Below are positions 273 through 15,208 of a DNA stretch of 64,000 nt, piece after piece. Positions within the stretch are counted from its first letter, which is position 1. The number at the start of each line of letters is the position of its first letter. The DNA is from Stenotrophomonas sp. 364 (lineage in GTDB: Bacteria; Pseudomonadota; Gammaproteobacteria; Xanthomonadales; Xanthomonadaceae), in assembly GCF_009832905.1 (NCBI RefSeq), contig NZ_CP047135.1, positions 4,779,585 to 4,843,584 on the forward strand, read 5' to 3'. The translations under genes were made by a program, and so were the position numbers. The notes below the pieces were generated by a model, which was not told the origin of the DNA, did not search any database, and saw only the letters and a program-made list of their open reading frames with translations.

Positions 273-446
273 GCGGTTGCAGGGGTGTGCCGCCCTGCGC
301 GCGGGGAACCGTTCTGGTTGCCCCCGCCCCCTTCCGCTTGCACAAAGCTGAAGCGGTTTACGCAATATCCGCGTCAGAATGTTGGCGCGCGTCATGCAGA
401 GATGGCAGAGTCGGGATCTCGAAGTCATGGGACGAAGGAACGCCCG

Positions 447-2702
447 ATGTATGCCGAAGCCCTCACCGCCGGTCACGCGCTCATGCGCCTGCACCAGGAC
501 CACCGCCTGATCCGTGTCGATACCGTGCTGGACCCGCAGACCTTCCTGGTCAAGCGGTTCGACGGCAGCGAACGCGTGTCCCATCCCTTCGCCTACCAGG
601 TCGAGCTGCTCTCGGTGCAGCCCCGGCTGGAGCTCAAGCAGCTGGTGGGCCAGCCGCTGCGGCTGATCCTGGGCGACGAGTTCGGTGGTCATGGCATCCA
701 CGGCTACGTGCGCGAGTTCGCCAGCACCGGCCGCGAGGCGCAGTTCAGCGCCTACCGCGCCGAGATCGCGCCGTGGTTTGCCTTCCTGGACTACACCAGC
801 AACTGCCGCATCTTCCAGGACATGAACGTGCTGAAGATCGTGGAAACGGTGTTCGCCGATTACCCCGACCTGGCCCGCTTCGACTATGACCTGGACACCG
901 GCAAGCTGCCCAAGCTGCCCTACTGCGTGCAGTACAACGAGTCCGATTTCGCCTTCGTCTCGCGCCTGCTCGAAGACGCCGGCATCTACTACAGCTTCCG
1001 CCACGATGAAGAGGGCCACACCCTGCTGCTCAGCGACGACTCCACCCTGAGCGTGGCGTTGGGCGAGCCGGCCCCGGTGTACTTCCGGGCGGATCAGGGC
1101 GTGCAGCAGCAGACCGGCCTGCACCGCTGGGGTGCCCGCCGCCGGGTGGGGCCGGGCGCGCATGCGCTGAGCAGTTTCGACTTCAAGCAGCCCAGTACGC
1201 CCTTGCGCGTGGTGCGCGGCAACGAGGCGCCGCGGGGCGTTTTGCCCGAACTCACCCAGTACCGTTACGACGGGGCGGCCCGCTTCGCCGACAGCCGCAT
1301 TGGCGAGGCGCTGGCGGCGGTGCGCAATGAAGAAACCGCGTGGCCCACCAAACTGTTTGAATGCGCCGGCAACGCCGCCGGGCTGCAGGCGGGCGGCTGC
1401 TTCACCCTGGAACAACAGCCGGACTTCATCGGCCGCGGCGCAGAAGACCGCCAGTTCTTCGTGGTGCGCCTGCAGCGCGAAGGGCGCAACAACTTCGCCA
1501 GCGATTTCGCCAGCGCCGAAGCGCCCAGCCACGCCATCGAAGCCGAGGTGCTGCGCCGCAAGATTCCCTACCGCCCGCTGCGGCAGACCCCGTGGCCGCG
1601 CATGCCCGGCCCGCAGACCGCCACCGTGGTGGGCCCGCCCGGCGAAGAACTGCATGCCGACGCCTACGGCCGGGTGAAGGTGCAGTTCCACTGGGACCGC
1701 AAGGAAGACCGCCGCGACAACGGCGCCGAGAACAGCTCCTGCTGGATCCGCAGCGCGAGCCCGTGGGCCGGCGCGGACATGGGCGGGGTATCACCGCCGC
1801 GCGTGGGCCAGGAAGTGGTGGTGGACTTCCTCGACGGCGACCCGGACCGCCCGATCATCACCGGCCGGGTGTTCAATGAAGAGAACATGCCGCCGTTCGG
1901 GCTGGAGGTGAGCGGCCTGAAGTCCAAGACGGTCAAGGGCGCCGGCTGGAACGAAATGACCATGCACGACACCGCCGGTGGCGAGCTGCTCAACATGCGT
2001 GCCCAGCGCGACATGGTCACCACCGTGCTCAACGACCAGAACGCCAGCATCCAGAACAACAAGTCCACCGCGGTGGCGGTGAACCACAGCATGAGCGTGG
2101 GCGCCAACCAGGACATCAGCGTGGGTGCCAACCGCGGCATCACCGTGACCGGCACCGACACCCTGGGCGTGACCGGCACGCGCACCACCAACATTACCGG
2201 CGCGGTCACCCAGAACTACCAGTCCGGCCAGACCAAGACCATCGCCGCGGCCGGCTACACCGAAACCATCACCGGCGATTTCGGCACCACCCTGACCGGC
2301 AACTACACCAGCCAGCGAACCGGTACCTGGAAGGAAACCGTTACCTCCACCTCGCTGCGCCAGGTGATCGGCAAGGTCACCCAGGAGTACTCGGCCGGGC
2401 GCGAAACCACCATTACCGGGCTGGACAAGCGCGGCGTGCAGGGCGCGGTGGAAGACACCAACATCGGCGCGCGCACCGTGGGCGTGGACGGCACCTTCGA
2501 GCACGAAGTCACCGGCACCCACAGCCAGCTGTCCAATGGCGACATGACCCTCGGCTCGGCCAGCAAGCTCACCGCGGCGGTGGGCGGGGCCTTCATCGAG
2601 ATCACCGACGGCGAGATCAAGATCTCCGCCGGCGGCTCGGAAGTAGTCATCAACAGCGGTGGCGTTTCGGTCAACGGCAGCGAGATCAAGCTCAACTGCT
2701 GA
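447..2702 (+). CDS. vgrG: Type VI secretion spike protein VgrG
   Basis: A 751-aa VgrG, the trimeric spike at the tip of the T6SS tube. The N-terminal gp27-like part is followed at about residues 390-480 by the gp5-like OB-fold, with the typical runs YGRVKVQFHWD, SPWAG and GDPDRPIITGRVFN. The C-terminal third is a repetitive gp5-type beta-helix needle (repeats such as VGANQDIS and VTGTDTLGVTG). No extra effector domain follows the needle. I chose the ATG at 447 because AAGGA lies 7 bases upstream; the frame stays open further upstream but that part is unlike VgrG. It is followed 22 bases later by the TPR gene, so it probably carries the Rhs effector downstream. No other T6SS structural genes are in the window. 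Confidence 0.93.
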   Translation: MYAEALTAGHALMRLHQDHRLIRVDTVLDPQTFLVKRFDGSERVSHPFAYQVELLSVQPRLELKQLVGQPLRLILGDEFGGHGIHGYVREFASTGREAQFSAYRAEIAPWFAFLDYTSNCRIFQDMNVLKIVETVFADYPDLARFDYDLDTGKLPKLPYCVQYNESDFAFVSRLLEDAGIYYSFRHDEEGHTLLLSDDSTLSVALGEPAPVYFRADQGVQQQTGLHRWGARRRVGPGAHALSSFDFKQPSTPLRVVRGNEAPRGVLPELTQYRYDGAARFADSRIGEALAAVRNEETAWPTKLFECAGNAAGLQAGGCFTLEQQPDFIGRGAEDRQFFVVRLQREGRNNFASDFASAEAPSHAIEAEVLRRKIPYRPLRQTPWPRMPGPQTATVVGPPGEELHADAYGRVKVQFHWDRKEDRRDNGAENSSCWIRSASPWAGADMGGVSPPRVGQEVVVDFLDGDPDRPIITGRVFNEENMPPFGLEVSGLKSKTVKGAGWNEMTMHDTAGGELLNMRAQRDMVTTVLNDQNASIQNNKSTAVAVNHSMSVGANQDISVGANRGITVTGTDTLGVTGTRTTNITGAVTQNYQSGQTKTIAAAGYTETITGDFGTTLTGNYTSQRTGTWKETVTSTSLRQVIGKVTQEYSAGRETTITGLDKRGVQGAVEDTNIGARTVGVDGTFEHEVTGTHSQLSNGDMTLGSASKLTAAVGGAFIEITDGEIKISAGGSEVVINSGGVSVNGSEIKLNC

Positions 2703-2724
2703 CCGGTCCATCGGAGGGACACCC

Positions 2725-4347
2725 ATGCACGACACCCCCATGCTGCGCGGCATCCAACGCCTCAGCGACGCCTGGCTCGCCGCCGCCGCCGACCCCAGCC
2801 GGCGGCTGCTGGTCTGGCGGCTGCCCGCCAACGCCAGCCGCCTGCTGGCCGCCTTCTTCGAGATGCAGCGGCACGACCAAGGCCGCGACACGCCAGACTA
2901 CTTCCTCCGCGTGGACACGCCCTATGAGCTCGGCTTCCGCTACAGCCGGCAGATCAAGCAGACCCTGCTCGAGCGCTACCTGGGCAGCCAGGACGAACTG
3001 CGCGGGCAGGGCATCACACTCGGCTGGCGCGGCCCGCATGCCGAGCACCCCGACAGCGCCGCCGACGTGGTGCAGGTGCTGGACAGCTTCGCCGAGCACC
3101 ACGGCAGCCACCTGCGGTTGCTGGCCGCCGTGCTGGAACCCGAGCGCATGGTGCCGGGCGACGGCTTTGAACGCTGGGTGGATGCGGCCCTGGCCGCCAG
3201 CCCCGGCGACCGCCTGCGCCTGGTGCTGGTGGACACCGAGGAAGACCCGCGCTGGCAGCCGCTGCTGGAGCGCCATGCCAGCGTGGCCGCGCGCATCGAC
3301 GCGCCGGTGGACATGTTCGCCATCGCCCGCGACACCGCCTCGCAGTCCGGCGGCACCGGCCCGGAAGTGCTGTACCGCCAGCTGCTCGCCGACCTGATGC
3401 TGCTGCTTGAGCGCGGCAGCCCGCAGCAGGTGGTGGGCCGCGCCGAGCGCGCGCTGGGGCTGGCCCAGCGCCACGGCTGGCAGGAGCAGGCGTCGGTGGT
3501 GCAGATGATGGTGGCCGGTGCCTGGCTCAAGGCCGGCGACCACGGCCAGGCCATCACCGCCTACCGCCAGGCGCGCAGCGCCGCCGATGCCGCCCGCAAC
3601 GCCGGCAATGCCGCCGCGCCCGAGCTGGTCATGCAGAGCTGGTTCGGCGAAGCCGGCTGCTGGCTCACCGCCAAAAACCCCGAGCGCGCCGCGCAGACCT
3701 ACCTGCAGGCGTCCACCTCGGCGGCCAGCATCCCGCACCCGATGTTCCAGCTGGAAGGCCAGCGCATGGCCGGCTACTGCCTGCTCCAGCACGGCAAGCG
3801 CGAGGAAGCGCGGACCCAACTGCTGGAAGCCATCCGCATCGCCAAGCCCCTCAGCACGCAGGACCGCAAGGCCACCACCCTGCCGCAGGCGCTGTGGGAC
3901 CTGCTGCAGCTGCAGGACCTGCGCCGCGCCGAGAAGATCCAGCTCACCGCCACGGCCTATCTCGAACAGACCACCGCGCTGCACGCGCAGGCCGAAGACG
4001 CCGCCGCCAAGCTTGGCCCAACGCCCACCCGCATGCAGCTGGATGTCATCGATGCCCAGTTGCACGCGGGCCTGGAACAGACCTTCCACCGCACCCAGCA
4101 GGAACGCGAACGGCTGGTGCAGGGCGGCGACGAATTCTTCCGCAAGATCGTCGCGGTGGGGCGTGAGTTCCTCGACCCGCACTGGAACGGCCTGCCCACC
4201 ATCGAACATCCGCTCGACCACGAGATTCCGGTCTGGAGCGAACCGCCGGCCATGCAGCCGCTGCCCGACCCCGGCCCGCTGCTGGCCGGTACCGACCTTG
4301 CCCACGTCGCACCGCCTGCGGCCACCCCTGGAGTTGTTGCCGCATGA
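2725..4347 (+). CDS. TPR-containing VgrG-associated protein, probable Rhs loading factor
   Basis: A 540-aa soluble protein with no signal peptide. The start at 2725 is preceded by GGAGGG. Residues 1-220 are mixed alpha/beta and unrecognised. Residues about 225-400 contain three TPR-like helical pairs (around AGAWLKAGDHGQAITAYRQA, GEAGCWLTAKNPERAAQTYL and GYCLLQHGKREEARTQLLEA). The C-terminus is helical, then proline-rich. It sits between vgrG and the Rhs gene and overlaps the next small gene by ATGA. Known Rhs effectors need an adaptor (EagR/DUF1795, DUF4123 or others) for loading on VgrG; no such gene is present here, so this protein is the best candidate. The role is inferred from position only. 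Confidence 0.65.
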   Translation: MHDTPMLRGIQRLSDAWLAAAADPSRRLLVWRLPANASRLLAAFFEMQRHDQGRDTPDYFLRVDTPYELGFRYSRQIKQTLLERYLGSQDELRGQGITLGWRGPHAEHPDSAADVVQVLDSFAEHHGSHLRLLAAVLEPERMVPGDGFERWVDAALAASPGDRLRLVLVDTEEDPRWQPLLERHASVAARIDAPVDMFAIARDTASQSGGTGPEVLYRQLLADLMLLLERGSPQQVVGRAERALGLAQRHGWQEQASVVQMMVAGAWLKAGDHGQAITAYRQARSAADAARNAGNAAAPELVMQSWFGEAGCWLTAKNPERAAQTYLQASTSAASIPHPMFQLEGQRMAGYCLLQHGKREEARTQLLEAIRIAKPLSTQDRKATTLPQALWDLLQLQDLRRAEKIQLTATAYLEQTTALHAQAEDAAAKLGPTPTRMQLDVIDAQLHAGLEQTFHRTQQERERLVQGGDEFFRKIVAVGREFLDPHWNGLPTIEHPLDHEIPVWSEPPAMQPLPDPGPLLAGTDLAHVAPPAATPGVVAA

Positions 4348-4488: not shown

Positions 4489-7400
4489 GTGAGCATTGCC
4501 GCCAAGCATTTCGATCCGCAGCTGGGCATCGACATCCACATGTACGCGATGCCGCCATGCCCGCTGCCCACGCCGCACATCGGCCTGGTGCTGGACCCGT
4601 TCGACTACATCCCGTTCATCGGCTCCACCATCAAGGTCAACGGCGTGCACCGCGGCACCGCCGGCACCGGCGGGCTGGACATCCACATTCCACTGGGCGT
4701 GTGGGGCCCGCCGCTGGCCGCGCCGATGGGCCCGCAGTTCGACGGCGAAGAAATCTTCATGGGCAGCCGCACCGTGTCGGCCGATGGCGAGCCGTTCTCG
4801 CGTCTGGCCATGCCCGTGCTGGACTGCAACCTGGCCGGCATGATCAATCCGTTCCGGGTGAAGAAGCCCAAGAAGCCGCTGCGCGCCATGTCGCTGCCCA
4901 CTGGCTTGAACGTGGCCATTCCCACCAGCGTCAAGGTCGGTGGCCCGCCCACCGTGTCGTGGACGGCGATGGCCTTCCGCGCCGCGTTCGCCGGCTTGGG
5001 CAAGCTGCGCAAGACCGACTTCTTCCGCAAGAAGATGGATGCCTTCGCCGCGTGGCGCAGGGGCAAGTGGGGGCATCTGCCATCGGGCACGCTTAAGTGC
5101 AGGATCCTGCGGGCCGAGCCGGTGGACATCCGCGACGGCAGCGTCTCGGTCAGCCACGAAGACTTCAGCATTCCCGGCCGCCTGCCGCTCAGCTGGCGCC
5201 GCGTGTACGCCTCGCGCCATGCCCAGCGCACCGGCGCCTGCGGTTACGGCTGGCAGACCCCGGCCGACATCGCGCTGGCGCTGTCGGCCGACGGCAGCGC
5301 CTGGCTGTCCGGCCCGGACGAGGTGGCCTTCTTCCCCGAGCTGCCGCGCCGGGACGGCATGGACGCGGCCACCCTGGACTTCGTGGACTGCGCGCGCCTG
5401 TGGCGCGAAAACGGCCAGTGGATCGTGCGTTTCAAGGGCGGCCTGCAGTACCACTTCGACGCCACCCCGGCCGCCGGCGTGGCGGTGCTGCCGCACGAGC
5501 GCAGCCTGCCCATCGAGCGCATTGAAGACCGCTGCGGCAACCACTGGCGCTTCGAGCGCCGCGACGGCCATCTGGTACGCATCGTCGAAAGCGGCGTGGA
5601 CGGCCTGCAGGGCCGCTTCATCGAAGTCGACGCGCGCCAGGGCCACATCGACCGCCTGCAGCTGCACGACCCGGCCAGCGGCCTGAACCACCTGCTGGTG
5701 AGCTACCGCTACGCCAACGGCGACCTGATCGCCGCGGTGGACCCGCTGGATGCCCCGCGCACCTTCGGCTACCAGCAGCACTACATGGTGCGCCATACCG
5801 ATCGGGTTGGCCTGTCGTTCTATTACGCGTTCGATGCGCAGTGGCGCGTGGTGCATTCCTGGGGCGATGGCGGCCTGTACGACTACCACTTCGACTACGA
5901 CGCACTGCTGCACGAAACCCGCATCACCGATTCGCTGGGCCATGTGAGCTTGGTCAAGTTCGATGAGAACCGCCTACCGCTGTGCGAGATCGACCCGCTT
6001 GATGGGGTGACCATCTTCGAGTACGACGACTTCGGCCGTACCGTGGCGGTGACCGACCCGGAGGGGCTGCGGACCGGGTTCGAGTATGACGAGCGTGGGA
6101 ACCTGGTGGTGCTGGTGCGCGCCGATGGCACCACCCTGCAGCAGCAGTTCGACGACAACGACCAGCTGCTGGCCGTGACCGACCCCGACGGCAACACCTG
6201 GCAGCAGCACTACGACGCCCGGGGCCTGCTGATCGAGCAGACCGACCCGCTGCAGGCCAGCACCCGCTACGCCTACGACGCCCATGGCCTGCTGCAGGCC
6301 CAGACCAACGCGCGCGGTGCCGTCATCGGTGTGGCCTACGACCGGCATGGGCTCGTGGCGTTGGTGCGCGATCCGCTGGGCCATGAGAGCCGCTTCGAGC
6401 ATGACCCCCTGGGTCGCCTGCTACGCCAGGTGGACCCGCTCGGCCAGCCCACGACGTACACCTACGACGTTAAGGGCCGGTTGCTGGCCGTTCTCGCCAC
6501 CGACGGCACCGGCGTACGCTGCGAATACGACGCCGAAGACCAGCTCATCACCTATCTGGACGAGGCCGGTGCGCGCACCCGCCTGCAGTACGTGGGCATC
6601 GGTCAGATCGGCAAGCGCCTGCAGGCCGACGGCCAGGTGGTGGAGTACCGCTACGACACCGAAGAACAGCTGGTGGCGGTGATCAACCAGCGGGGCGAGA
6701 CCTACACGCTCACCCGCGACCCGCTCGGCCGCATCGTGGAAGAAGTGGATTACTGGGGCCAACCGCGTCGCTACGAGTACGACGCGGCCGGGCGCCTCAC
6801 CGCCACCTTGGACCCGCTGGGCCAGCGCATCGGGTTTGCCACCGACAAGATGGGCCGCATCACCGCCAAGACCCTGCCGGACATCCGCCAGCCGGGGCGG
6901 CAGGTCAAGGAAACGTTCGAGTACGACAAGCGCGGCCAGCTCATCGCGTTGCGCAACCCGCATCGGTACGCCACCCGCCGCTTCGACCCGCTGGGCCAAC
7001 TGCTGGAGGAACTGCAGGACGGCTTCCGCGTGGGGTACGCCTACGATGAAGTGGGTAACCGCATCCAGCGTCAGACCGGCGCCGGCAACACCGTGGCGTT
7101 CGCCTACGACCTGCGCGACCAGTTGATCGAAGTGGGCATCAACGACGAAGCGCCCATCACCCTGGAGCGTGACGCGCTGGGCCGTACCACCCGCGAGCAG
7201 CTGAGCGCGCACGTGGAGCGCCGCTTCGAGTACGACGCGCGCAACCTGCTCACCGCGCAGACCGTCCTGCGCGATGCGTCACCGCTGTTCGACACCCGCT
7301 ACGACTACGACCGCACCGGCAACCTCACCCGCCGCCAGGACAGCGCGCAGGGCGTGGACGAGTACCGCTACGACGCGATAGGCCGGCTGCTGGCGCACAC

Positions 7401-9144
7401 CGACCCGAAGGGCGTGCTGCACCCCTACTACAACGACCCGGCCGGCGACCGCCTGCGCACCGAAATCCGCGAAGTGCGCATGCGCAAAGTGGCTGGTGGC
7501 GACGAACAGGCAGAGCTGCTGTGGACACGCGAGGGCACTTACCAAGGCGTCCACTACGTGTTCGACCGCGCCGGCGACATGGTGCGCAAGGGCAGCCAAG
7601 GGGGCGGCGACGCCAGCGACCTGGAACTGATCTGGGACGCCAACCATCGGCTGGCCGAGAGCCGGCGCGGTGGGAAGAGCACGCACTACGGCTACGACCC
7701 GTTGGGACGACGGGTGTTCAAGCGCAATCCGGACGAGACAACGTGGTTCTTCTGGGATGGCGACGCGCTGCTGGGCGAGGTGAAGCAGGCCAACGACGCC
7801 GAAGACGCCGCGCCGGTCTGGGTGGACAACGTGGCCAGCCTGATCGAGGTGAAGCGGCGGCAGCGGCGGTTGGGGAAGCTGCATGAGGGGGTTCGGGAGT
7901 ATGTGTATTACCCCGGGTCGTTTGTGCCGCTCTCGCTCATTGCTGGGGATACGGCTCAGGCGGCTGAGGTGAAACCCGTATATCAAGCTGCGCAGGACGG
8001 CGGCGGCACTGTTTCTAACGGATCCGCGACGCCGTCGCTTCCGAAGATGGAAGCTCCCGAGCACGTGACGCGAACGTCGGCAGATGACCCTAAGCGAAAG
8101 CAACATGCTAATCAGGAAAACACCACTGGGCTAGGCAGCCTCGGGGTTACGGCGCTGGGAAGCGGTGCTGCGAATCGACAAAAATTAGTAGGTGAGCATC
8201 AAGCAGGATCGCCATCCATTGGGCTGGAACAGCTGGGTGGCATAGGGCTGGGACAAAAGGTCAGCACCGCGTCGATAGCCAGTAAAACGGTCCACTCGAC
8301 TGTACTAGCGCAACCCGACCATGGAGTAAGGGAAGGGTCTGGCAGCGCCGAGCTACTAAATGGTCGCGCGGTGGAAAACGCGCTGATTGCTGGTAGTTCG
8401 AATACGCGCGAAGCGCCGACGGGAGGTGGAGTGTATTACTTCCATCTCATGCCAAATGGCTGTCCAGAGCGAATCTTGAGCGCGTCCGGAGCCATTGTGT
8501 GGGAGGGGTGCGTAGGAGCTTGGGGGGCGGTCGAGTCAACACCTGCGTCCAACACTGAGAACAACCTGCGGTTGCAAGGGCAGTACTTCGATTGCGAAAC
8601 GGGTCTTCATTACAATAGGAACAGGTACTTTGATCCGGGCGCTGGCCAGTTCATCGGACAGGACCCGCTAAGGCTGGATGCAGGTGAAAACCTCTATGAA
8701 TTTGCCGTAAACACTAACTCATGGACAGATCCACTCGGTCTGAGTTGCAGAACGACGAGAAAATTGCAGAGCTTCGTGGATCAAGCTGTTCGCGAAATTA
8801 CGGAAAATCCGCAGATGGCTAAGAGTCTCATGAGCAAGGGCAGCTATAGCCATCTCGAAAACGCAACCAGTTTGTATTCTGCAAGTTTCGGAAAAGCAGT
8901 TGAGCGCCGGGTTGCTCAACTGGTGCAAGGGGATAAGAATCTGCGTAACACAATAAAGCACACGGGCCTCGCGCGTGGTGCCAATGGTCAGTTTATATCA
9001 AGTCCGGACTTCACAAAAAATATTGGAAAGCCAAAGGTGTGGGATGTAACCACAAATGCGGGTGTCCCGGCCCACGCCGCGAGGTATGGGGATGAGAAAG
9101 TTACATATCTCGTGTACGATGTCGTGCACGGTTTAAATTTCTAA
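4489..9144 (+). CDS. PAAR-Rhs polymorphic toxin with C-terminal nuclease-like tip
   Basis: A 1551-aa Rhs effector with a GTG start at 4489. Residues about 5-120 resemble a PAAR-type spike domain (PPCPLPTPHIG, VNGVHRGTAG, FMGSRTV). Residues 200-330 look like the DUF6531 entry domain, then YD/Rhs repeats run to about residue 1150. A low-complexity linker follows, then the conserved core end (LQGQYFDCETGLHYNRNRYF) and the cleavage-type motif DPLGL at 1414-1418. Residues 1419-1551 are the tip. It has an Asp (SPDF) followed by KVWDVTT, reminiscent of PD-(D/E)XK nuclease toxins, but this is a visual match only. GC falls clearly in the linker and tip, as expected of a swapped cassette. The immunity gene starts 7 bases later. 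Confidence 0.9.
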   Translation: MSIAAKHFDPQLGIDIHMYAMPPCPLPTPHIGLVLDPFDYIPFIGSTIKVNGVHRGTAGTGGLDIHIPLGVWGPPLAAPMGPQFDGEEIFMGSRTVSADGEPFSRLAMPVLDCNLAGMINPFRVKKPKKPLRAMSLPTGLNVAIPTSVKVGGPPTVSWTAMAFRAAFAGLGKLRKTDFFRKKMDAFAAWRRGKWGHLPSGTLKCRILRAEPVDIRDGSVSVSHEDFSIPGRLPLSWRRVYASRHAQRTGACGYGWQTPADIALALSADGSAWLSGPDEVAFFPELPRRDGMDAATLDFVDCARLWRENGQWIVRFKGGLQYHFDATPAAGVAVLPHERSLPIERIEDRCGNHWRFERRDGHLVRIVESGVDGLQGRFIEVDARQGHIDRLQLHDPASGLNHLLVSYRYANGDLIAAVDPLDAPRTFGYQQHYMVRHTDRVGLSFYYAFDAQWRVVHSWGDGGLYDYHFDYDALLHETRITDSLGHVSLVKFDENRLPLCEIDPLDGVTIFEYDDFGRTVAVTDPEGLRTGFEYDERGNLVVLVRADGTTLQQQFDDNDQLLAVTDPDGNTWQQHYDARGLLIEQTDPLQASTRYAYDAHGLLQAQTNARGAVIGVAYDRHGLVALVRDPLGHESRFEHDPLGRLLRQVDPLGQPTTYTYDVKGRLLAVLATDGTGVRCEYDAEDQLITYLDEAGARTRLQYVGIGQIGKRLQADGQVVEYRYDTEEQLVAVINQRGETYTLTRDPLGRIVEEVDYWGQPRRYEYDAAGRLTATLDPLGQRIGFATDKMGRITAKTLPDIRQPGRQVKETFEYDKRGQLIALRNPHRYATRRFDPLGQLLEELQDGFRVGYAYDEVGNRIQRQTGAGNTVAFAYDLRDQLIEVGINDEAPITLERDALGRTTREQLSAHVERRFEYDARNLLTAQTVLRDASPLFDTRYDYDRTGNLTRRQDSAQGVDEYRYDAIGRLLAHTDPKGVLHPYYNDPAGDRLRTEIREVRMRKVAGGDEQAELLWTREGTYQGVHYVFDRAGDMVRKGSQGGGDASDLELIWDANHRLAESRRGGKSTHYGYDPLGRRVFKRNPDETTWFFWDGDALLGEVKQANDAEDAAPVWVDNVASLIEVKRRQRRLGKLHEGVREYVYYPGSFVPLSLIAGDTAQAAEVKPVYQAAQDGGGTVSNGSATPSLPKMEAPEHVTRTSADDPKRKQHANQENTTGLGSLGVTALGSGAANRQKLVGEHQAGSPSIGLEQLGGIGLGQKVSTASIASKTVHSTVLAQPDHGVREGSGSAELLNGRAVENALIAGSSNTREAPTGGGVYYFHLMPNGCPERILSASGAIVWEGCVGAWGAVESTPASNTENNLRLQGQYFDCETGLHYNRNRYFDPGAGQFIGQDPLRLDAGENLYEFAVNTNSWTDPLGLSCRTTRKLQSFVDQAVREITENPQMAKSLMSKGSYSHLENATSLYSASFGKAVERRVAQLVQGDKNLRNTIKHTGLARGANGQFISSPDFTKNIGKPKVWDVTTNAGVPAHAARYGDEKVTYLVYDVVHGLNF
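6971..7930 (+). repeat. Rhs core segment duplicated downstream (copy 1)
   Basis: This stretch of the intact Rhs core is repeated almost base for base at 9882-10841 with a constant offset of 2911 and no indel that I could see. It begins near the codons for TRRFDPLGQ and ends at YYPGSFVP, which is where toxin cassettes usually begin to diverge in Rhs genes. Confidence 0.9.
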
Positions 9145-9151
9145 GGTTGAT

Positions 9152-9850
9152 ATGAAAACGTTAGATGGCGTCAATTTTGAGATGAAGTTTGACGATGGCG
9201 GCTCAACGTTTGTGGATGCTATCTACAAGAGTTGTATATTTGATAACTGCGGACTGTCTCTGTGCAAGCGACCGGAGAGAATGTCAAAGGTCAGGCGCAT
9301 CTCAGTTCAGGGTTGCTACTCTGTCAATTCAAGTGTGGGTCCCTGCGAATTCGAAGACGTCTTCATCCATGACTTGAAGACAAACCCAATACTTCTTATC
9401 TGGTCCTCTTTCTTCCGTCGGGTCACTCTCTCGGGAAAAATTGGAAAGATGAATATAAATGCGGAGCCATGGGGGTTCTGCACAGATATCGATGTGCTGT
9501 CTAGATTTTCGAATGCGAGAGCCGAATTTTACGGCGCGACGGATTGGGCTATCGACATCAGTCAAGCGCGATTCCTTGATTTCAACTGTCGCGGTGTTCC
9601 GTTCGATTTGATTCGAAGGGACCCAGAAACTCAGGTTATTCTTTGTAAAGATGAATTCCCGGGCCTGGATGCGATGGGTGAAGGATTCAATGAGAGATTT
9701 CCTGAGGTCTATTCGTATCTCAAGAGCTTTTCTAAGTCGGGCGATGAAGAGGTTCTGCTTGTGGTTCCCCTTGCAGCGCCCAAAAGCCGTAAAGATGATT
9801 GGAGGGGTGGGATTGCCGAGCTGAGGGCGCTTGGCTTCGTCAAAGATTGA
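9152..9850 (+). CDS. Putative immunity protein for the Rhs tip, beta-helix-like
   Basis: A 232-aa protein starting 7 bases after the Rhs stop and low in GC like the toxin tip. Its middle part alternates short hydrophobic and polar segments (SCIFDNCGLSL, FEDVFIHDL, FRRVTLSGKIGKMNIN, ARFLDFNCRGVPFDL) as in pentapeptide or right-handed beta-helix proteins, but without a strict A(D/N)LXX repeat. No signal peptide is visible, which fits a cytoplasmic partner for a nuclease toxin. The immunity role is inferred from position immediately after the toxin; the family is not one I can name. Confidence 0.65.
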   Translation: MKTLDGVNFEMKFDDGGSTFVDAIYKSCIFDNCGLSLCKRPERMSKVRRISVQGCYSVNSSVGPCEFEDVFIHDLKTNPILLIWSSFFRRVTLSGKIGKMNINAEPWGFCTDIDVLSRFSNARAEFYGATDWAIDISQARFLDFNCRGVPFDLIRRDPETQVILCKDEFPGLDAMGEGFNERFPEVYSYLKSFSKSGDEEVLLVVPLAAPKSRKDDWRGGIAELRALGFVKD

Positions 9851-9881: not shown

Positions 9882-10915
9882 TCACCCGTCGGTTCGACCC
9901 GCTGGGCCAGCTGCAGGAGGAACTGCAGGACGGCTTCCGCGTGGGGTACGCCTACGATGAAGTGGGCAACCGCATCCAGCGCCAGACCGGCGCCGGCAAC
10001 ACCGTGGCGTTCGCCTAAGACCTGCGCGACCAGTTGATCGAAGTGGGCATCAACGACGAAGCGCCCATCACCCTGGAGCGTGACGCGCTGGGCCGTACCA
10101 CCCGCGAGCAGCTGAGCGCGCACGTGTAGCGCCGCTTCGAGTACGACGCGCGCAACCTGCTCACCGCGCAGACCGTCCTGCGCGATGCGTCACCGCTGTT
10201 CGACACCCGCTACGACTACGACCGCACCGGCAACCTCACCCGCCGCCAGGACAGCGCGCAGGGCGTGGACGAATACCGCTACGACGCGATAGGCCGGCTG
10301 CTGGCGCACACCGACCCGAAGGGCGTGCTGCACCCCTACTACAACGACCCGGCCGGCGACCGCCTGCGCACCGAAATCCGCGAAGTGCGCATGCGCAAAG
10401 TGGCTGGTGGCGACGAACAGGCAGAGCTGCTGTGGACACGCGAGGGCACTTACCAGGGCGTGCACTACGTGTTCGACCGCGCCGGCGACATGGTGCGCAA
10501 GGGCAGCCCGGGCGGCGGCGACGCCAGCGACCTGGAACTGATCTGGGACGCCAACCATCGGCTGGCCGAGAGCCGGCGCGGTGGGAAGAGCACGCACTAC
10601 GGCTACGACCCGTTGGGACGACGGGTGTTCAAGCGCAATCCGGACGAGACAACGTGGTTCTTCTGGGATGGCGACGCGCTGCTGGGCGAGGTGAAGCAGG
10701 CCAACGACGCCGAAGACGCCGCGCCGGTCTGGGTGGACAACGTGGCCAGCCTGATCGAGGTGAAGCGGCGGCAGCGGCGGTTGGGGAAGCTGCATGAGGG
10801 GGTTCGGGAGTATGTGTATTACCCGGGGAGCTTCGTGCCGTTGGCGTTGCTGGAGAGACGGAATGTACCTGGCAGAGACGAGCTGGAGAGACGAGCTGGA
10901 ATGCCGGGGGTTTAG
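9882..10915 (+). pseudogene. Displaced Rhs core remnant with nonsense mutations (copy 2)
   Basis: A near-identical copy of 6971-7930. Read in the Rhs frame it carries two stops absent from copy 1: FAYDLRDQ becomes FA-stop at about 10016-10018 (TAC to TAA), and HVERRFEYD gains a TAG at about 10126-10128 (GAG to TAG). The frame then stays open through DEYRYDAIGRLL and reaches YYPGSFVPLALLERR, ending at TAG 10913-10915 before any toxin tip. There is no start codon or PAAR end. It is the leftover of a tandem rhs duplication or of an earlier tip exchange. Confidence 0.88.
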
Positions 10916-11016
10916 TCCCAGCCCTCTGAGGGATGGAGAGGGTGAACGCGAGTTGAGGCAGGCTAGCCGACCAGTAGCGGTGCACAACCTGCCCGGGCGC
11001 CAGCCTGCAGTGGAAA

Positions 11017-12123
11017 TTGAAATTCCTGTGCAAAAGGCCAGCGCATCTGCGAGCACCCCAAGTCCGAATGGACTTGGCACACTGGGAAGTCTGTCTCTTT
11101 CAAACTCGAAACGCGCGCCCAACCAGAGTAAAGATGCTGGTCAAGAAGGCGGGGAACCAAACTCAGCGCAAGCGGTCTGAAAGACCGGTGTCCGCTGATA
11201 AAGCACCCGAGGCGATAACTGAATCATCCATTTCGCCCCGAATTGTCCCCTCCGTCTCTCAAGCTATTGCTGTTTCCAGCGAGCCGCACGTCCACGATCA
11301 AATCCAGCCCCACTCTACGGGGGGCGAGCAGGCAGGTGCTGCAATTGCGGTCGAGGGGCAGCGGGCGTCAGCTGGCGTCTACTGGTATCAATGCGATCCC
11401 AACGGCTACCCCATTCGCCTGCTGGATGCGGGTGGCGGCCAGTACTGGGCGGCGCACCCTGCTGCTTGGGGCCTGGCGAACGTGGAGATCGAGAGAATCA
11501 GCAATCCGCTGCGCTTTCAGGGGCAGTACGCTGATGATGAAACGGGACTCCACTACAACCGGTATCGCTACTACGACAACCGCGTTGGGGCCTACGTCTC
11601 TCAGGATCCGATACGACTTCTAGGGTCGATCAACACGTATACCTACGGACAAAACCCTATTGGATGGGCTGATCCTTGGGGCTTAATCCTGAAGGAAGTG
11701 GCCGATGCAATGCCGAACTCGGCAGGCGTTTACCACATTGAACTTGGAGATGAGTACTACACCGGTAGCGGTGTGAACATTCGTGAGCGGCTCTCAAGCT
11801 CAAAGCACCCGGCAAATAGGCTGTTGAACAATCCAGATGTAACGATCACCACATACCCCGTCGATCTCGGAACGGCCGCCGGCAATAACCGCATGAGCAA
11901 TCATATTCTAAGGGGCTATGAACAAGGTGTCATGGATGACATTAATATAAACAACGTTCCAAATGAGGGGGGGTCCATCAATCAAGTTCGTGCTGCGGCT
12001 TTGGGTCGAGTTGGTGAATTCGCAGATGATGCAGCTCGGCATGGGGCCTCGATGGGGAGTGGCACGGTCAGCACACCCTCACTGCGGGCTTCAGGTAAAG
12101 TAGCAGCTAGGGTCAATTGTTAG
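11017..12123 (+). pseudogene. Silent Rhs C-terminal tip carrying a GIY-YIG nuclease toxin
   Basis: This open frame differs from that of the upstream core remnant. The linker just before it (about 10965-11180, with GLGTLGSLSL resembling GLGSLGVTAL of the intact Rhs) is in a third frame. There is no convincing start: only TTG at 11017 or ATG at 11068 and 11134. It encodes the Rhs core end (RFQGQYADDETGLHYNRYRY), then DPWGL at 11671-11685. The following ~146-aa tip has GVY and, nine residues later, YTG, then an Arg (NIRERL) and a Glu (RGYEQGVMDD), the order of catalytic residues in GIY-YIG endonucleases. Its immunity gene follows after 7 bases. The toxin domain itself appears intact. Confidence 0.8.
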
Positions 12124-12130
12124 GACGTAT

Positions 12131-12973
12131 ATGACGAAAAATAGCTACGTGGTCATGCACAGTGACTATGTTGATCGGTACATTGGGGATGCATCGCATG
12201 CTCTATTTTTTAACCGACCATTCGATCCAAGGATTATGCGGAGCGCGGAAATTGCGCATCTATGGACGCCGGCTGGTGTAAAGATGGAGCGCCTTCCGGA
12301 AATGCTGGCGGCCATGTCGGGTCTGAAGGATCTAACCATCAGAGACCAGGTCGAGAACGCTGCGCTGGCTAGTATGAAGCAAGGTGATCTGCCTGAGAGT
12401 CTTGAGCGATTGGTGATTTCTAATAGCTTAAAAACACTGAACTGGCCGAATGTCGTTCTCCCGAACCTGAAAGAGTTGGTCGCACTTCCGACCATCAAAT
12501 TCTCGGCTTCCTGCTTTCCATCGCTTGAGCGCATATATCTCAATCCTAGTAAGAATCTCTCCAATCTGGTTGAGGCGTTAAAGCTCCCGCTAAAGGCGCT
12601 TCATCTTCTTGGTGTTCCGAATGGGGGTGACATCTTCGAGGCCATCGCAGGGGCGGATCTGGATGAGGTCGGCCTGCTCGGTGCGCGATCTCTGATTGAT
12701 CTCAATGGGATTGGAAAGATCTCGTCTATTAGATCTATTAAGCTGAAGAATCTTCCAGGACTGGTGGATATTGGAGGATTGAAGGATTTAACTAAGTTGA
12801 GGTCGGTTAACATTCAATACTGTAATAAGGTGCGGAATTTGGAGGTTCTTAACGACATTCCTGGAATCGAGAAATTGATAATTATTGGCGCTCTATCGGG
12901 CGATGCGGTGAAGTTGGAGCCAAGGCTTCAGAAGGTCATGGATGAGTCAATAGGGCCTGCCAAGCCGGCGTGA
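12131..12973 (+). CDS. Putative immunity protein with leucine-rich-repeat-like pattern
   Basis: A 280-aa cytoplasmic-looking protein starting 7 bases after the GIY-YIG tip. From about residue 60 it shows irregular 20-25 residue repeats with L-x-x-L-x-L spacing (LPEMLAAMSGLKDLTIRD, LPESLERLVISN, LPNLKELVALP, LKDLTKLRSVNIQYC), the look of a leucine-rich-repeat solenoid. Lower GC than the flanking core genes agrees with a transferred cassette. Position suggests it neutralises the GIY-YIG tip; since that toxin is silent here, it may now protect against neighbours that deliver the same toxin. The function is inferred. Confidence 0.65.
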   Translation: MTKNSYVVMHSDYVDRYIGDASHALFFNRPFDPRIMRSAEIAHLWTPAGVKMERLPEMLAAMSGLKDLTIRDQVENAALASMKQGDLPESLERLVISNSLKTLNWPNVVLPNLKELVALPTIKFSASCFPSLERIYLNPSKNLSNLVEALKLPLKALHLLGVPNGGDIFEAIAGADLDEVGLLGARSLIDLNGIGKISSIRSIKLKNLPGLVDIGGLKDLTKLRSVNIQYCNKVRNLEVLNDIPGIEKLIIIGALSGDAVKLEPRLQKVMDESIGPAKPA

Positions 12974-13037: not shown

Positions 13038-13544
13038 ATGACTATCCACACAACTGCAGTGTCAAGTTCGATTGCAACCAGGAGGGGGCTGAGCTCCGTC
13101 CGAATAGCAGGCTGTAAGCTGCCAGAGTCCTACTGCGAATTCGCAGCGACGCATGGGTATGGCCGCTTTGGTGGCCTGGTCATCATCTATTCGGGCGTGC
13201 CGGAGCATCCGGACTCTCTTCTCGCTCAGGGCGCGCGCGTCAAAGGCTTCATAGACGATGCCATCGCCGAGGGGTGCTTCGAGTTCGAGCCGGACGGCGA
13301 TGAGGTGGTCGCCAGCCGCCTGTATCCCTTTGCTGCCAGCGAGAACGGTGAGTACTTTGTTTGGGATCTCAATGAGAAGCGCGCGGATGAGTATTCAATC
13401 TACTGTGTTGGTGCTCGAATGGCGGGTCTGCGCTATGCTGCAGAGTCACTGGGCGAACTGCTTGAGAAGCTATGCAGTGCATCCATCAAGAATGTAATGG
13501 GGCCTGGGTACACTCCTTTGCTCCCTACGTTTGAAGGCTTGTGA
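13038..13544 (+). CDS. Orphan SUKH (SMI1/KNR4) family immunity-like protein
   Basis: A 168-aa protein with the SUKH signature near its N-terminus (KLPESYCEFAATHGYGRFGG) followed by the beta-rich core (LYPFAASENGEYFVWDL) and a C-terminal helix (LRYAAESLGELLEKLC). SUKH proteins are a very common immunity family for nuclease-type polymorphic toxins. No toxin gene lies next to it, so it is an orphan. It is encoded on the same strand in the immunity gene row. Confidence 0.75.
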   Translation: MTIHTTAVSSSIATRRGLSSVRIAGCKLPESYCEFAATHGYGRFGGLVIIYSGVPEHPDSLLAQGARVKGFIDDAIAEGCFEFEPDGDEVVASRLYPFAASENGEYFVWDLNEKRADEYSIYCVGARMAGLRYAAESLGELLEKLCSASIKNVMGPGYTPLLPTFEGL

Positions 13545-13602
13545 TTGATTAAAATTCATGTTCGATACCTTCCCGTGATGCAGGAGGCTGAAGGAACGGC
13601 CG

Positions 13603-14211
13603 ATGCTTGCTAAAGAAGCTCGCAACAGGTGGCAGACCGAGCAGTTGAAGCTGGTCGAGAAGAAGCTCAACGATGCGGCGAAGTCGCTCAAGATGGGTCC
13701 CATGCCGGAGTCGCCCTTTGGCCTCACCGAACTAGGCATGGCCGACTTTCGCGGCGCGACCCTCGCTGAACCCTTGCGTTACCTGAAAGTGAGCAATGTC
13801 GATCTCTCTGACGTCCTGTTCAAAGAGGGTGCCAGCATCAATGAGTCCGAGATGGAGAGGTGTCGGCTTGATCGGGTTGACATGCGTAACGTCTTCGTAA
13901 GGCGTAGCTTCAGTGACTGCAGCTTTGTCAAAGCGAAGCTCTCGGGCGCTAGGATGGGCGGAGAATTCGTGCGCTGCGACTTCGCCGGGGCGAATCTATC
14001 CAAGTCATTCGCTACGGACTGTAAGTTCACGGGATGCAACTTCGCCGGTGCAACACTGTCCGATGTGCACTTCATCAGTTGCACGTTCGAGGGCTGTGAT
14101 TTCTCGGACGTCAAGCTGCTCACTGGATCCGTCGCCGGCAGCGAGTTCCTGGGCGGAACTTCGATTGACCAATTGGCGGGCTGTATCACCGATAGCGCAG
14201 TAATTCGGTGA
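13603..14211 (+). CDS. Pentapeptide-repeat protein, orphan immunity-like
   Basis: A 202-aa protein with a ribosome site AAGGAAC 7 bases before ATG 13603. Residues about 1-35 form a charged helix; residues 45-190 are pentapeptide repeats with F or L at the centre position (MADFRGATL, NVDLSDVLF, CDFAGANLSKSF, CNFAGATLSDV, CDFSDVKLL). Such repeats fold into a square beta-helix that can mimic DNA. Members occur both as DNA-gyrase protectors and as immunity proteins of polymorphic toxins; the neighbourhood favours the latter. Confidence 0.75.
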   Translation: MLAKEARNRWQTEQLKLVEKKLNDAAKSLKMGPMPESPFGLTELGMADFRGATLAEPLRYLKVSNVDLSDVLFKEGASINESEMERCRLDRVDMRNVFVRRSFSDCSFVKAKLSGARMGGEFVRCDFAGANLSKSFATDCKFTGCNFAGATLSDVHFISCTFEGCDFSDVKLLTGSVAGSEFLGGTSIDQLAGCITDSAVIR

Positions 14212-14266
14212 GGAAGCAGCTTGGAAAGAGTACGGTACTCGTTGTCCCACGTACGCTGGGGGCTTC

Positions 14267-14653
14267 ATGGAAGTATCACTAACCGCCCGCTTGGGCGGCC
14301 CCGAGGTCGGCATCCTGTTCCTTGCAGGCGTAGTTCATGCTCGCAAGCGCTTGAAAGCTGCACTGGATGGGGTTTCCTTGGCGGGCCTTGATGTTATGGA
14401 TATAACGCTGCATATCGGCGGTAGCATCACCGACATTTCCCCCGCAGCACCGAGTGTTGAGGCGCGCTATTTCAAGCAGCGACGGCGCCTGAAGATCTTC
14501 GTAAGCATACCGAGTGCGGATGCGCGGGAGTTGCCCGAAGAGGACGTTGGTCGGCGGGTTACGGAATGGCTGGTGGATGGCCTCGAGAGCGTCGCTCTGT
14601 CGCGGAGTGCAGCTGGCATGACCCTCGGTCCGGTACTGAGTGCGCTTCGGTGA
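14267..14653 (+). CDS. Small protein of unknown function in the immunity row
   Basis: A 128-aa protein not recognised. No signal peptide or clear membrane helix. The first half has alternating strand-like segments (VGILFLAGVVHARKRL, VMDITLHIGG), the second half ends with a helix (VTEWLVDGLESVAL). It lies 10 bases before the DUF4303 gene on the same strand and is probably cotranscribed with it. The setting suggests an immunity-related role; I cannot support a specific one. Confidence 0.55.
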   Translation: MEVSLTARLGGPEVGILFLAGVVHARKRLKAALDGVSLAGLDVMDITLHIGGSITDISPAAPSVEARYFKQRRRLKIFVSIPSADARELPEEDVGRRVTEWLVDGLESVALSRSAAGMTLGPVLSALR

Positions 14654-14662
14654 GATTTTAAG

Positions 14663-15208
14663 ATGGAAGGTGTCAATGGTCTGGTGAATTTGGTCTGCAA
14701 GACATTTCGGCCCGCGCTGCTGGACTTGTTTAGAAGTGGCGAGAACTTCTATTACTGCACCTTCGTCATAACCGAGGAAGGCCACGCGCCATTTCTTTCA
14801 GCTTGGTCTGAAGAGGCGCTGGCGAGGGCAGTGGACGAGAGTGGCGAAGGCCCAGAGGTAGCTGCGGATCTGAAGTGGTCGTATGCAGATTCTCCATACG
14901 TTGACTTTGGAAGCGAATACACTGAGAAGCTTCGCGCGCCCTTCCTCGCCAGGCCGAACGTTCAAGAGCTCGGCGTCGATGAGTGGAAAAAAGAGATTGA
15001 GCTCCGTATGGATGCTGTAGAGCAGGCCGCACGCCAATTGGATGGAGAGGGCGCGTTCGGTGCAGGGCAGCGTCGCAGCAGGCTACTTGTTGCGGTGGAG
15101 ATCATGCCTCCAGTGCCTTCCAACGTTGACCGAGTGGCTCGGCTGAACGACACCAATTCGGACATCTTCAAGCAGTGGTTGGAAGAGGCTGCAGAGCATC
15201 AGCGTTGA
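14663..15208 (+). CDS. DUF4303-type protein, orphan immunity-like
   Basis: A 181-aa protein whose N-terminal half resembles DUF4303 (FYYCTFVITEEGHAPFLSAW, then SEEALARAVDE and DLKWSYADSPYVDF). DUF4303 proteins occur in immunity clusters of contact-dependent and Rhs toxins. The helix EEWKKEIE-like segment (VDEWKKEIELRMDAVEQAAR) follows. No toxin partner is adjacent. The family call is by eye. Confidence 0.65.
   Translation: MEGVNGLVNLVCKTFRPALLDLFRSGENFYYCTFVITEEGHAPFLSAWSEEALARAVDESGEGPEVAADLKWSYADSPYVDFGSEYTEKLRAPFLARPNVQELGVDEWKKEIELRMDAVEQAARQLDGEGAFGAGQRRSRLLVAVEIMPPVPSNVDRVARLNDTNSDIFKQWLEEAAEHQR

What the first reader, a model, noticed from the sequence alone, without database searches (positions are those of the whole stretch)
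9882..12123. Silent second Rhs tip encoding a GIY-YIG nuclease behind a decayed core duplicate
The ~960-base core duplicate (offset 2911 from 6971-7930) carries two nonsense mutations. The linker shifts frame twice, and a complete-looking GIY-YIG toxin domain with its own immunity gene sits downstream. The tip is therefore stored but unexpressed. Simple recombination between the two core copies would not fuse it in frame, because the copy ends at 10915, so reactivation needs a further frame correction.
Basis: partly seen in the sequence, partly recalled or inferred. Interest (0 to 1): 0.75.

Follow-up and report, generated by a model that had tools for sequence, protein, structure and literature searches.

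The report
Displaced, decaying Rhs GIY-YIG toxin tip
A bacterium whose relatives swap toxin tips on a delivery protein still carries what looks like its former tip, a predicted nucleic-acid-cutting enzyme, now cut off from the delivery protein and broken upstream while the neighbouring protective gene stays whole; this is a new example of a process already described for this gene family.

Summary
A 942-base piece of the Rhs core recurs 2911 bases downstream (14 differences) with two in-frame stops, then a linker that changes frame twice and an open 145-aa toxin domain with an LRR immunity gene. The GIY-YIG fold is supported: best structural matches are UvrC, then I-TevI and T4 EndoII, and the Tox-URI1 signature is present. 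In 3 of 91 genus genomes the same tip ends an uninterrupted Rhs of 1545-1546 aa.

This is the known 'C-terminal displacement' of rhs (Jackson 2009). I read it as a decaying remnant rather than a stored weapon: of seven other genomes with this immunity family, three have the fused tip; the other four keep an open immunity gene with the toxin truncated (2) or undetected (2). The window also keeps, as an orphan, the immunity-like gene that stands directly behind the current tip of G056, the closest of the 17 loci compared (93% DNA identity). That core-core recombination alone would give a tipless Rhs follows from the frames. 'Unexpressed' is untested. New member of a known kind.

The parts
285..2702 (+). 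VgrG spike gene (T6SS) upstream of rhs
   Evidence: NCBIfam TIGR03361, 528 bits
2659..4347 (+). conserved adaptor/chaperone-like gene between vgrG and rhs
   Evidence: weak SycD-like and TPR matches, under cut-off; next to rhs in the relatives
4489..9144 (+). main rhs gene, 1551 aa, open; carries tip 1
   Evidence: open frame; Pfam RHS_repeat, E 5.6e-73
6972..7913 (+). core segment that is duplicated downstream
8752..9144 (+). tip 1, current toxin domain of the main rhs (no family match); 77% identical tip in G063
9152..9850 (+). immunity gene 1 (by position); 57% relative directly behind the same tip in G063
9883..10824 (+). 5'-truncated duplicate of the rhs core with two in-frame stops (10016, 10127); its frame closes at 10913-10915
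10825..11376 (+). linker of the displaced tip; reading frame changes twice
   Evidence: frame and motif comparison with relatives
11377..11685 (+). conserved Rhs segment up to the start of the tip
   Evidence: TIGR03696, 85 bits; 53-55% identity to the three intact carriers
11686..12123 (+). tip 2, displaced GIY-YIG (URI) nuclease-like toxin domain, 145 aa, open
12131..12973 (+). immunity gene 2 (by position), leucine-rich-repeat protein, 280 aa, open
   Evidence: Pfam LRR_4, E 6e-7; relatives directly behind the fused tip in G065, G080, G041
13038..13544 (+). orphan immunity-like gene, SUKH
   Evidence: SMI1_KNR4, E 7.4e-9
13603..14211 (+). orphan pentapeptide-repeat gene of the array
   Evidence: Pfam Pentapeptide, E 1e-16
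14267..14653 (+). orphan immunity-like gene, weakly Imm12
   Evidence: Imm12, E 0.021, under its cut-off
14663..15208 (+). orphan DUF4303 immunity-like gene; its relative stands directly behind the current rhs tip of G056 and G049
   Evidence: DUF4303, E 4e-31; 93.4% and 88.1% DNA identity; position

Best explanation
This is a displaced C-terminal tip module of a T6SS-type Rhs effector. Shown: one locus with an open vgrG-adaptor-rhs(tip 1)-immunity 1 set, then a 5'-truncated copy of the same core leading into a second linker, a GIY-YIG tip and an LRR immunity gene; the second frame has two stops in the core and two frame changes in the linker. Inferred: the GIY-YIG tip was once the working tip; a DNA circle carrying a core fragment, tip 1 and immunity 1 integrated by one crossover in the core, giving the main gene its new tip and pushing the old one downstream behind the leftover core fragment. 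The old toxin frame, cut off from the delivery part, then gathered stops and frame changes. Its immunity gene, and others behind it, are kept because they protect against relatives that still fire those tips. When it was delivered, the tip would have cut nucleic acid in a rival's cytoplasm, as GIY-YIG enzymes do.
For: The architecture fits the published model: core fragment of the same gene starting abruptly just behind immunity gene 1, different tips, tip regions of low G+C (core 68%; tip 1 with linker 54%; tip 2 with the conserved segment 55%; immunity genes 48-49%) (Jackson 2009, passages). The copy's similarity to G056 runs on into the linker start (to 10857) while the main gene's stops at 7931, likewise for G049 (10860 and 7929), so tip 1 looks like the newcomer. 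The same tip is fused in frame in G065, G080, G041 with an LRR immunity gene directly behind. G060 shows a like arrangement with a 1090-base core fragment at 97.9%. Of 14 core differences, 5 are specific to the copy against both outgroups, two of them the stops; 5 are specific to the main gene, none a stop; 4 are unresolved. Open immunity gene without whole toxin in G060, G084, G042, G066. The own genome holds a T6SS sheath gene.
Against: The toxin domain itself has not visibly decayed: its frame is open and it is as close to the fused tip of G065 (70%) as the metagenomic P0002 is (69%); a still useful tip would look the same. No circle or donor was seen. That immunity 2 acts on tip 2, and that it protects, rests on position alone. 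Immunity 2 is only 38% identical to those behind the three fused tips (36-38% over all seven relatives), so it may not protect against them. G009 keeps a piece of the toxin and no immunity match.
Confidence: 0.82

Rival explanations
1. A stored, reversible weapon: the tip is kept as a spare and returned to use by recombination between the cores, as in passaged Salmonella.
For: Toxin domain and immunity gene are open; the roughly 700 bases of core behind the second stop have no change resolved as copy-specific (3 unresolved); recombination of this kind is published (PMC3967940, passages).
Against: The copy's frame closes at 10913-10915, before the linker and tip, and two frame changes follow, so recombination alone gives a tipless Rhs. 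The three displaced remnants of this tip seen in other genomes (G060, G084, G009) are truncated.
Confidence: 0.08
2. An internally expressed toxin-antitoxin-like pair: tip 2 and immunity 2 are transcribed and translated from inside the fragment and keep themselves in the genome.
For: Orphan Rhs tips of Salmonella have internal start sites and act this way (PMC7043789, passages). Tip and immunity frames are open, with possible start codons inside the fragment; the immunity start lies 7 bases behind the toxin stop.
Against: No promoter-like site on the coding strand between 9000 and 15300 (2 found, both on the other strand; 3.1 expected by chance), though that scan covers one promoter type only. 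In 4 other genomes the immunity gene persists without whole toxin.
Confidence: 0.1
3. Assembly or sequencing errors in a second, working rhs gene.
For: No reads could be mapped.
Against: The copy lacks about the first half of the gene (827 of 1551 codons), starts abruptly behind immunity 1, and has 14 substitutions against the main core, two of which make the stops; the genome is one contig; a like arrangement occurs in G060.
Confidence: 0.02

Closest known systems
Dissociated ('displaced') rhs tips, Jackson et al. 2009 (PMC2935791; abstract and passages seen)
   Same: Core fragment of the same clade plus a different tip behind an intact rhs gene; fragments with frameshifts or early stops are described there for Serratia marcescens; in E. 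coli one shared tip was displaced independently by two different tips.
   Different: Described there for Enterobacteriaceae; here the toxin fold, the fused in-frame relatives and the fate of toxin against immunity gene are followed for one tip in another genus.
Orphan rhs-CT/rhsI of Salmonella Typhimurium LT2, Koskiniemi et al. 2014 (PMC3967940; abstract and passages seen)
   Same: Main rhs, immunity gene, then a fragment sharing 522 bp (95%) of rhs with orphan tip and immunity; the orphan tip is also found fused in other strains.
   Different: That orphan is joined by recombination; here the frame of the copy closes before the tip. Toxins were not compared.
Tox-URI1 polymorphic toxins, Zhang et al. 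2012 (PMC3482391; passages seen)
   Same: URI (GIY-YIG) fold, typically on RHS proteins; signature Y, YxG, R, [RK]xxE, N.
   Different: Immunity families listed there for Tox-URI1 are Imm14, 26, 44 and 51; here the neighbour is an LRR protein.
vgrG6 operon of Stenotrophomonas rhizophila CFBP13503 (PMC13340143; passages seen)
   Same: vgrG, adaptor, rhs, immunity genes and a low-G+C cluster with Knr4/Smi1 and LRR proteins.
   Different: The rhs there is PAAR-fused (no Pfam PAAR match here); the passages I saw do not mention a displaced core copy or a GIY-YIG tip; sequences were not compared.
Immunity gene arrays of Vibrio cholerae T6SS clusters, Kirchberger et al. 2017 (PMC5361080; passages seen)
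   Same: Old effectors replaced, their immunity genes kept in an array.
   Different: There effector genes replaced by effector-immunity modules; here an Rhs core fragment and a whole toxin domain remain.

Membership tests
Displaced (orphan) Rhs tip module | core fragment of the same rhs downstream of an intact rhs, joined to a different tip | tested here: met
   928 of 942 bases identical; the main protein matches the second unit only up to residue 1421, not in the tip
Displaced (orphan) Rhs tip module | no delivery (N-terminal) part of its own | tested here: met
   only residues 828-1152 and 1311-1421 of the main protein recur
Displaced (orphan) Rhs tip module | no translation start signal | tested here: inconclusive
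   start-like codons exist inside the fragment; use of them needs data
Displaced (orphan) Rhs tip module | same tip found fused to a full rhs elsewhere | tested here: met
   G065, G080, G041 of 91 genomes
Displaced (orphan) Rhs tip module | integration through a circular intermediate | not testable with these tools
   inferred from the architecture only
GIY-YIG / URI nuclease fold | beta-beta-alpha-beta-alpha core | tested here: met
   model elements E14-20, E23-29, H32-36, H44-47, E53-60, H68-86
GIY-YIG / URI nuclease fold | structural match to solved members above unrelated folds | tested here: met
Tox-URI1 | signature Y, YxG, R, [RK]xxE, N | tested here: met
   Y16, Y25 and G27, R35, R76 and E79, N90, all invariant in the 6 sequences of A1; signature
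Tox-URI1 | match to a curated profile of the family | tested here: inconclusive
   no GIY-YIG or URI profile up to E 1 in Pfam; a UvrC model in NCBIfam at E 0.045, far under its cut-off
Tox-URI1 | nuclease activity and toxicity | not testable with these tools
   needs an experiment
T6SS Rhs effector (main gene) | vgrG upstream and T6SS sheath gene in the genome | tested here: met

The most novel reading that the evidence does not exclude
In this tip family the immunity protein changes two to three times as fast as the toxin (raw differences: window against G065, tip 30%, immunity 62%; G080 against G041, 6% and 20%), so one nuclease has split within a genus into immunity classes that no longer protect each other, and a displaced locus keeps the memory of one class only.
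Probability: 0.25. Interest if true: 0.45.

Novelty: new member of a known kind. Interest (0 to 1): 0.3.

Why it matters
It adds a case in which the stages of one tip can be laid side by side: fused and open in three genomes, displaced with the toxin domain still whole in the window, truncated in G060 and G084, and only the immunity gene found in G042 and G066. That makes the question 'is an orphan toxin a spare weapon, or litter beside a useful immunity gene' testable at one locus.

Tried and rejected

The genome-contig scan found one distant Rhs only; the plasmid search one 39.5% hit over half the tip. Family-wide search with the tip: 2 of 395 genomes drawn (own and G041), 1 of 54 genera; the draw is a sample, since other known carriers do not appear as matches. 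The genus list is cut at E about 1.8e-7, so the count of genomes with the tip or a piece of it (7 of 91, own included) is a lower bound. 78 of the 91 genomes matched the query, mostly by the shared Rhs part; I fetched regions from 17 of them, largely the best scoring, and one more region of the own genome, so G056 is the closest among 17 loci, not among all.

Naming the organism failed. G+C 66.7% and the operon's likeness to S. rhizophila fit Stenotrophomonas; this is an inference. Rfam gave nothing. Not done: tree of tips, dN/dS, a fold of tip 1.

Four literature searches listed no paper that I saw to describe this displaced tip; I saw listings, and passages of eight papers at most, no whole text.

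Full report
What is there. The locus runs vgrG (285-2702), an adaptor-like gene (2659-4347), an open rhs of 1551 aa (4489-9144) with tip 1, and immunity gene 1 (9152-9850). From 9883 the sequence is again rhs core: 9883-10824 matches 6972-7913 at 928 of 942 bases without gaps. In the core frame it has stops at 10016 and 10127 and closes at 10913-10915. The next segment, with the linker's conserved glycine-leucine motif, lies in frame 2 and closes at 11178; the conserved Rhs segment and the tip lie in frame 0 up to 12121-12123. In relatives with an intact gene such a motif and the tip lie in one frame. Immunity gene 2 follows at 12131-12973.

Which copy changed. With G056 and G049 as outgroups, 5 of the 14 core differences are specific to the copy and 5 to the main gene; 4 are not resolved. 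Two of the five copy-specific changes make the stops; none of the main-specific ones does. Neither stop occurs in the 18 of 19 rows of other cores that cover both sites. The copy's similarity to G056 continues into the linker start (to 10857), the main gene's stops at 7931. The simplest reading is that tip 2 was there first and tip 1 came in.

Relatives. In 91 genomes of the genus, this tip ends an uninterrupted Rhs frame of 1545-1546 aa in G065, G080 and G041 (61-63% over the matched query; 68-70% over the tip), each with an LRR immunity gene directly behind. Remnants lie behind other rhs genes in G060 (tip residues 46-131), G084 (80-131) and G009 (90-130, with a stop). Immunity 2 has relatives in 8 of 91 genomes including the own one, each in a frame without stops. 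Three of the other seven are the fused cases; G060 and G084 have truncated toxins; in G042 and G066 no piece of the tip was found in the stretch fetched (E up to 1). So where this tip is not fused, the immunity gene tends to outlast the toxin; G009 is the exception, with a toxin piece and no immunity match. G060 carries its own core fragment of 1090 bases, 97.9% identical to its main core.

The array. Behind immunity 2 lie SUKH, pentapeptide, Imm12-like and DUF4303 genes. The DUF4303 gene is 93.4% identical in DNA to the gene directly behind the current rhs tip of G056 and 88.1% to the one in G049; no DNA match to the linker and tip of G056 appears in the first 20000 bases of the window. The window thus seems to hold immunity to its relatives' present tips without those tips. 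Such arrays are known (PMC5361080, passages).

Mechanism. Jackson et al. propose that circles carrying a core fragment and a tip integrate by one crossover and shunt the old tip downstream (passages). The architecture here fits; the circle itself is inferred. Koskiniemi et al. show that such an orphan can be joined again by recombination (passages). Starsta et al. show internal expression of orphan tips (passages), so 'unexpressed' needs data; a simple promoter scan found nothing on the coding strand.

Against my reading. The toxin domain is whole and has not changed faster than P0002 (70% and 69% to G065), which a recent displacement and a still useful tip would both give. Immunity 2 is only 38% identical to those behind the fused tips, so protection against those is doubtful; a metagenomic protein, P0122, is 94% identical, so its own class circulates.

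Verdict. Real, well observed, and of a known kind.

Noticed in passing
13038-15208: Array of orphan immunity-like genes (SUKH, pentapeptide, Imm12-like, DUF4303) whose order differs from G056; the DUF4303 gene matches the one directly behind the current tip of G056 and G049.
   Followed up: partly
11686-12973 and L026-L030: The immunity protein diverges much faster than the toxin domain in this family (38% against 70% identity; 80% against 94%).
   Followed up: partly
L029 6067-9545 (G060): Like displaced arrangement: a 166-aa frame, a 1090-base core fragment, a 199-aa frame of unknown kind, then a truncated tip 2 and an open immunity gene.
   Followed up: partly
L039 (G036) and L034/L043 (G066, G078): Current tips of these rhs genes show by eye other GIY-YIG-like motifs, so several such tips may use this core.
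   Followed up: no
L004 / L040 (own genome 899075-899416): A second Rhs-like match in a 342-aa open frame elsewhere in the genome.
   Followed up: no
2-232: Lysine-alanine-rich repetitive frame upstream of vgrG, running off the window's start; the S. rhizophila vgrG6 operon has an hns gene upstream (PMC13340143, passages).
   Followed up: no
L032 7273-8088 (G042): Relative of immunity 2 on the opposite strand behind the rhs gene, without a tip match.
   Followed up: no
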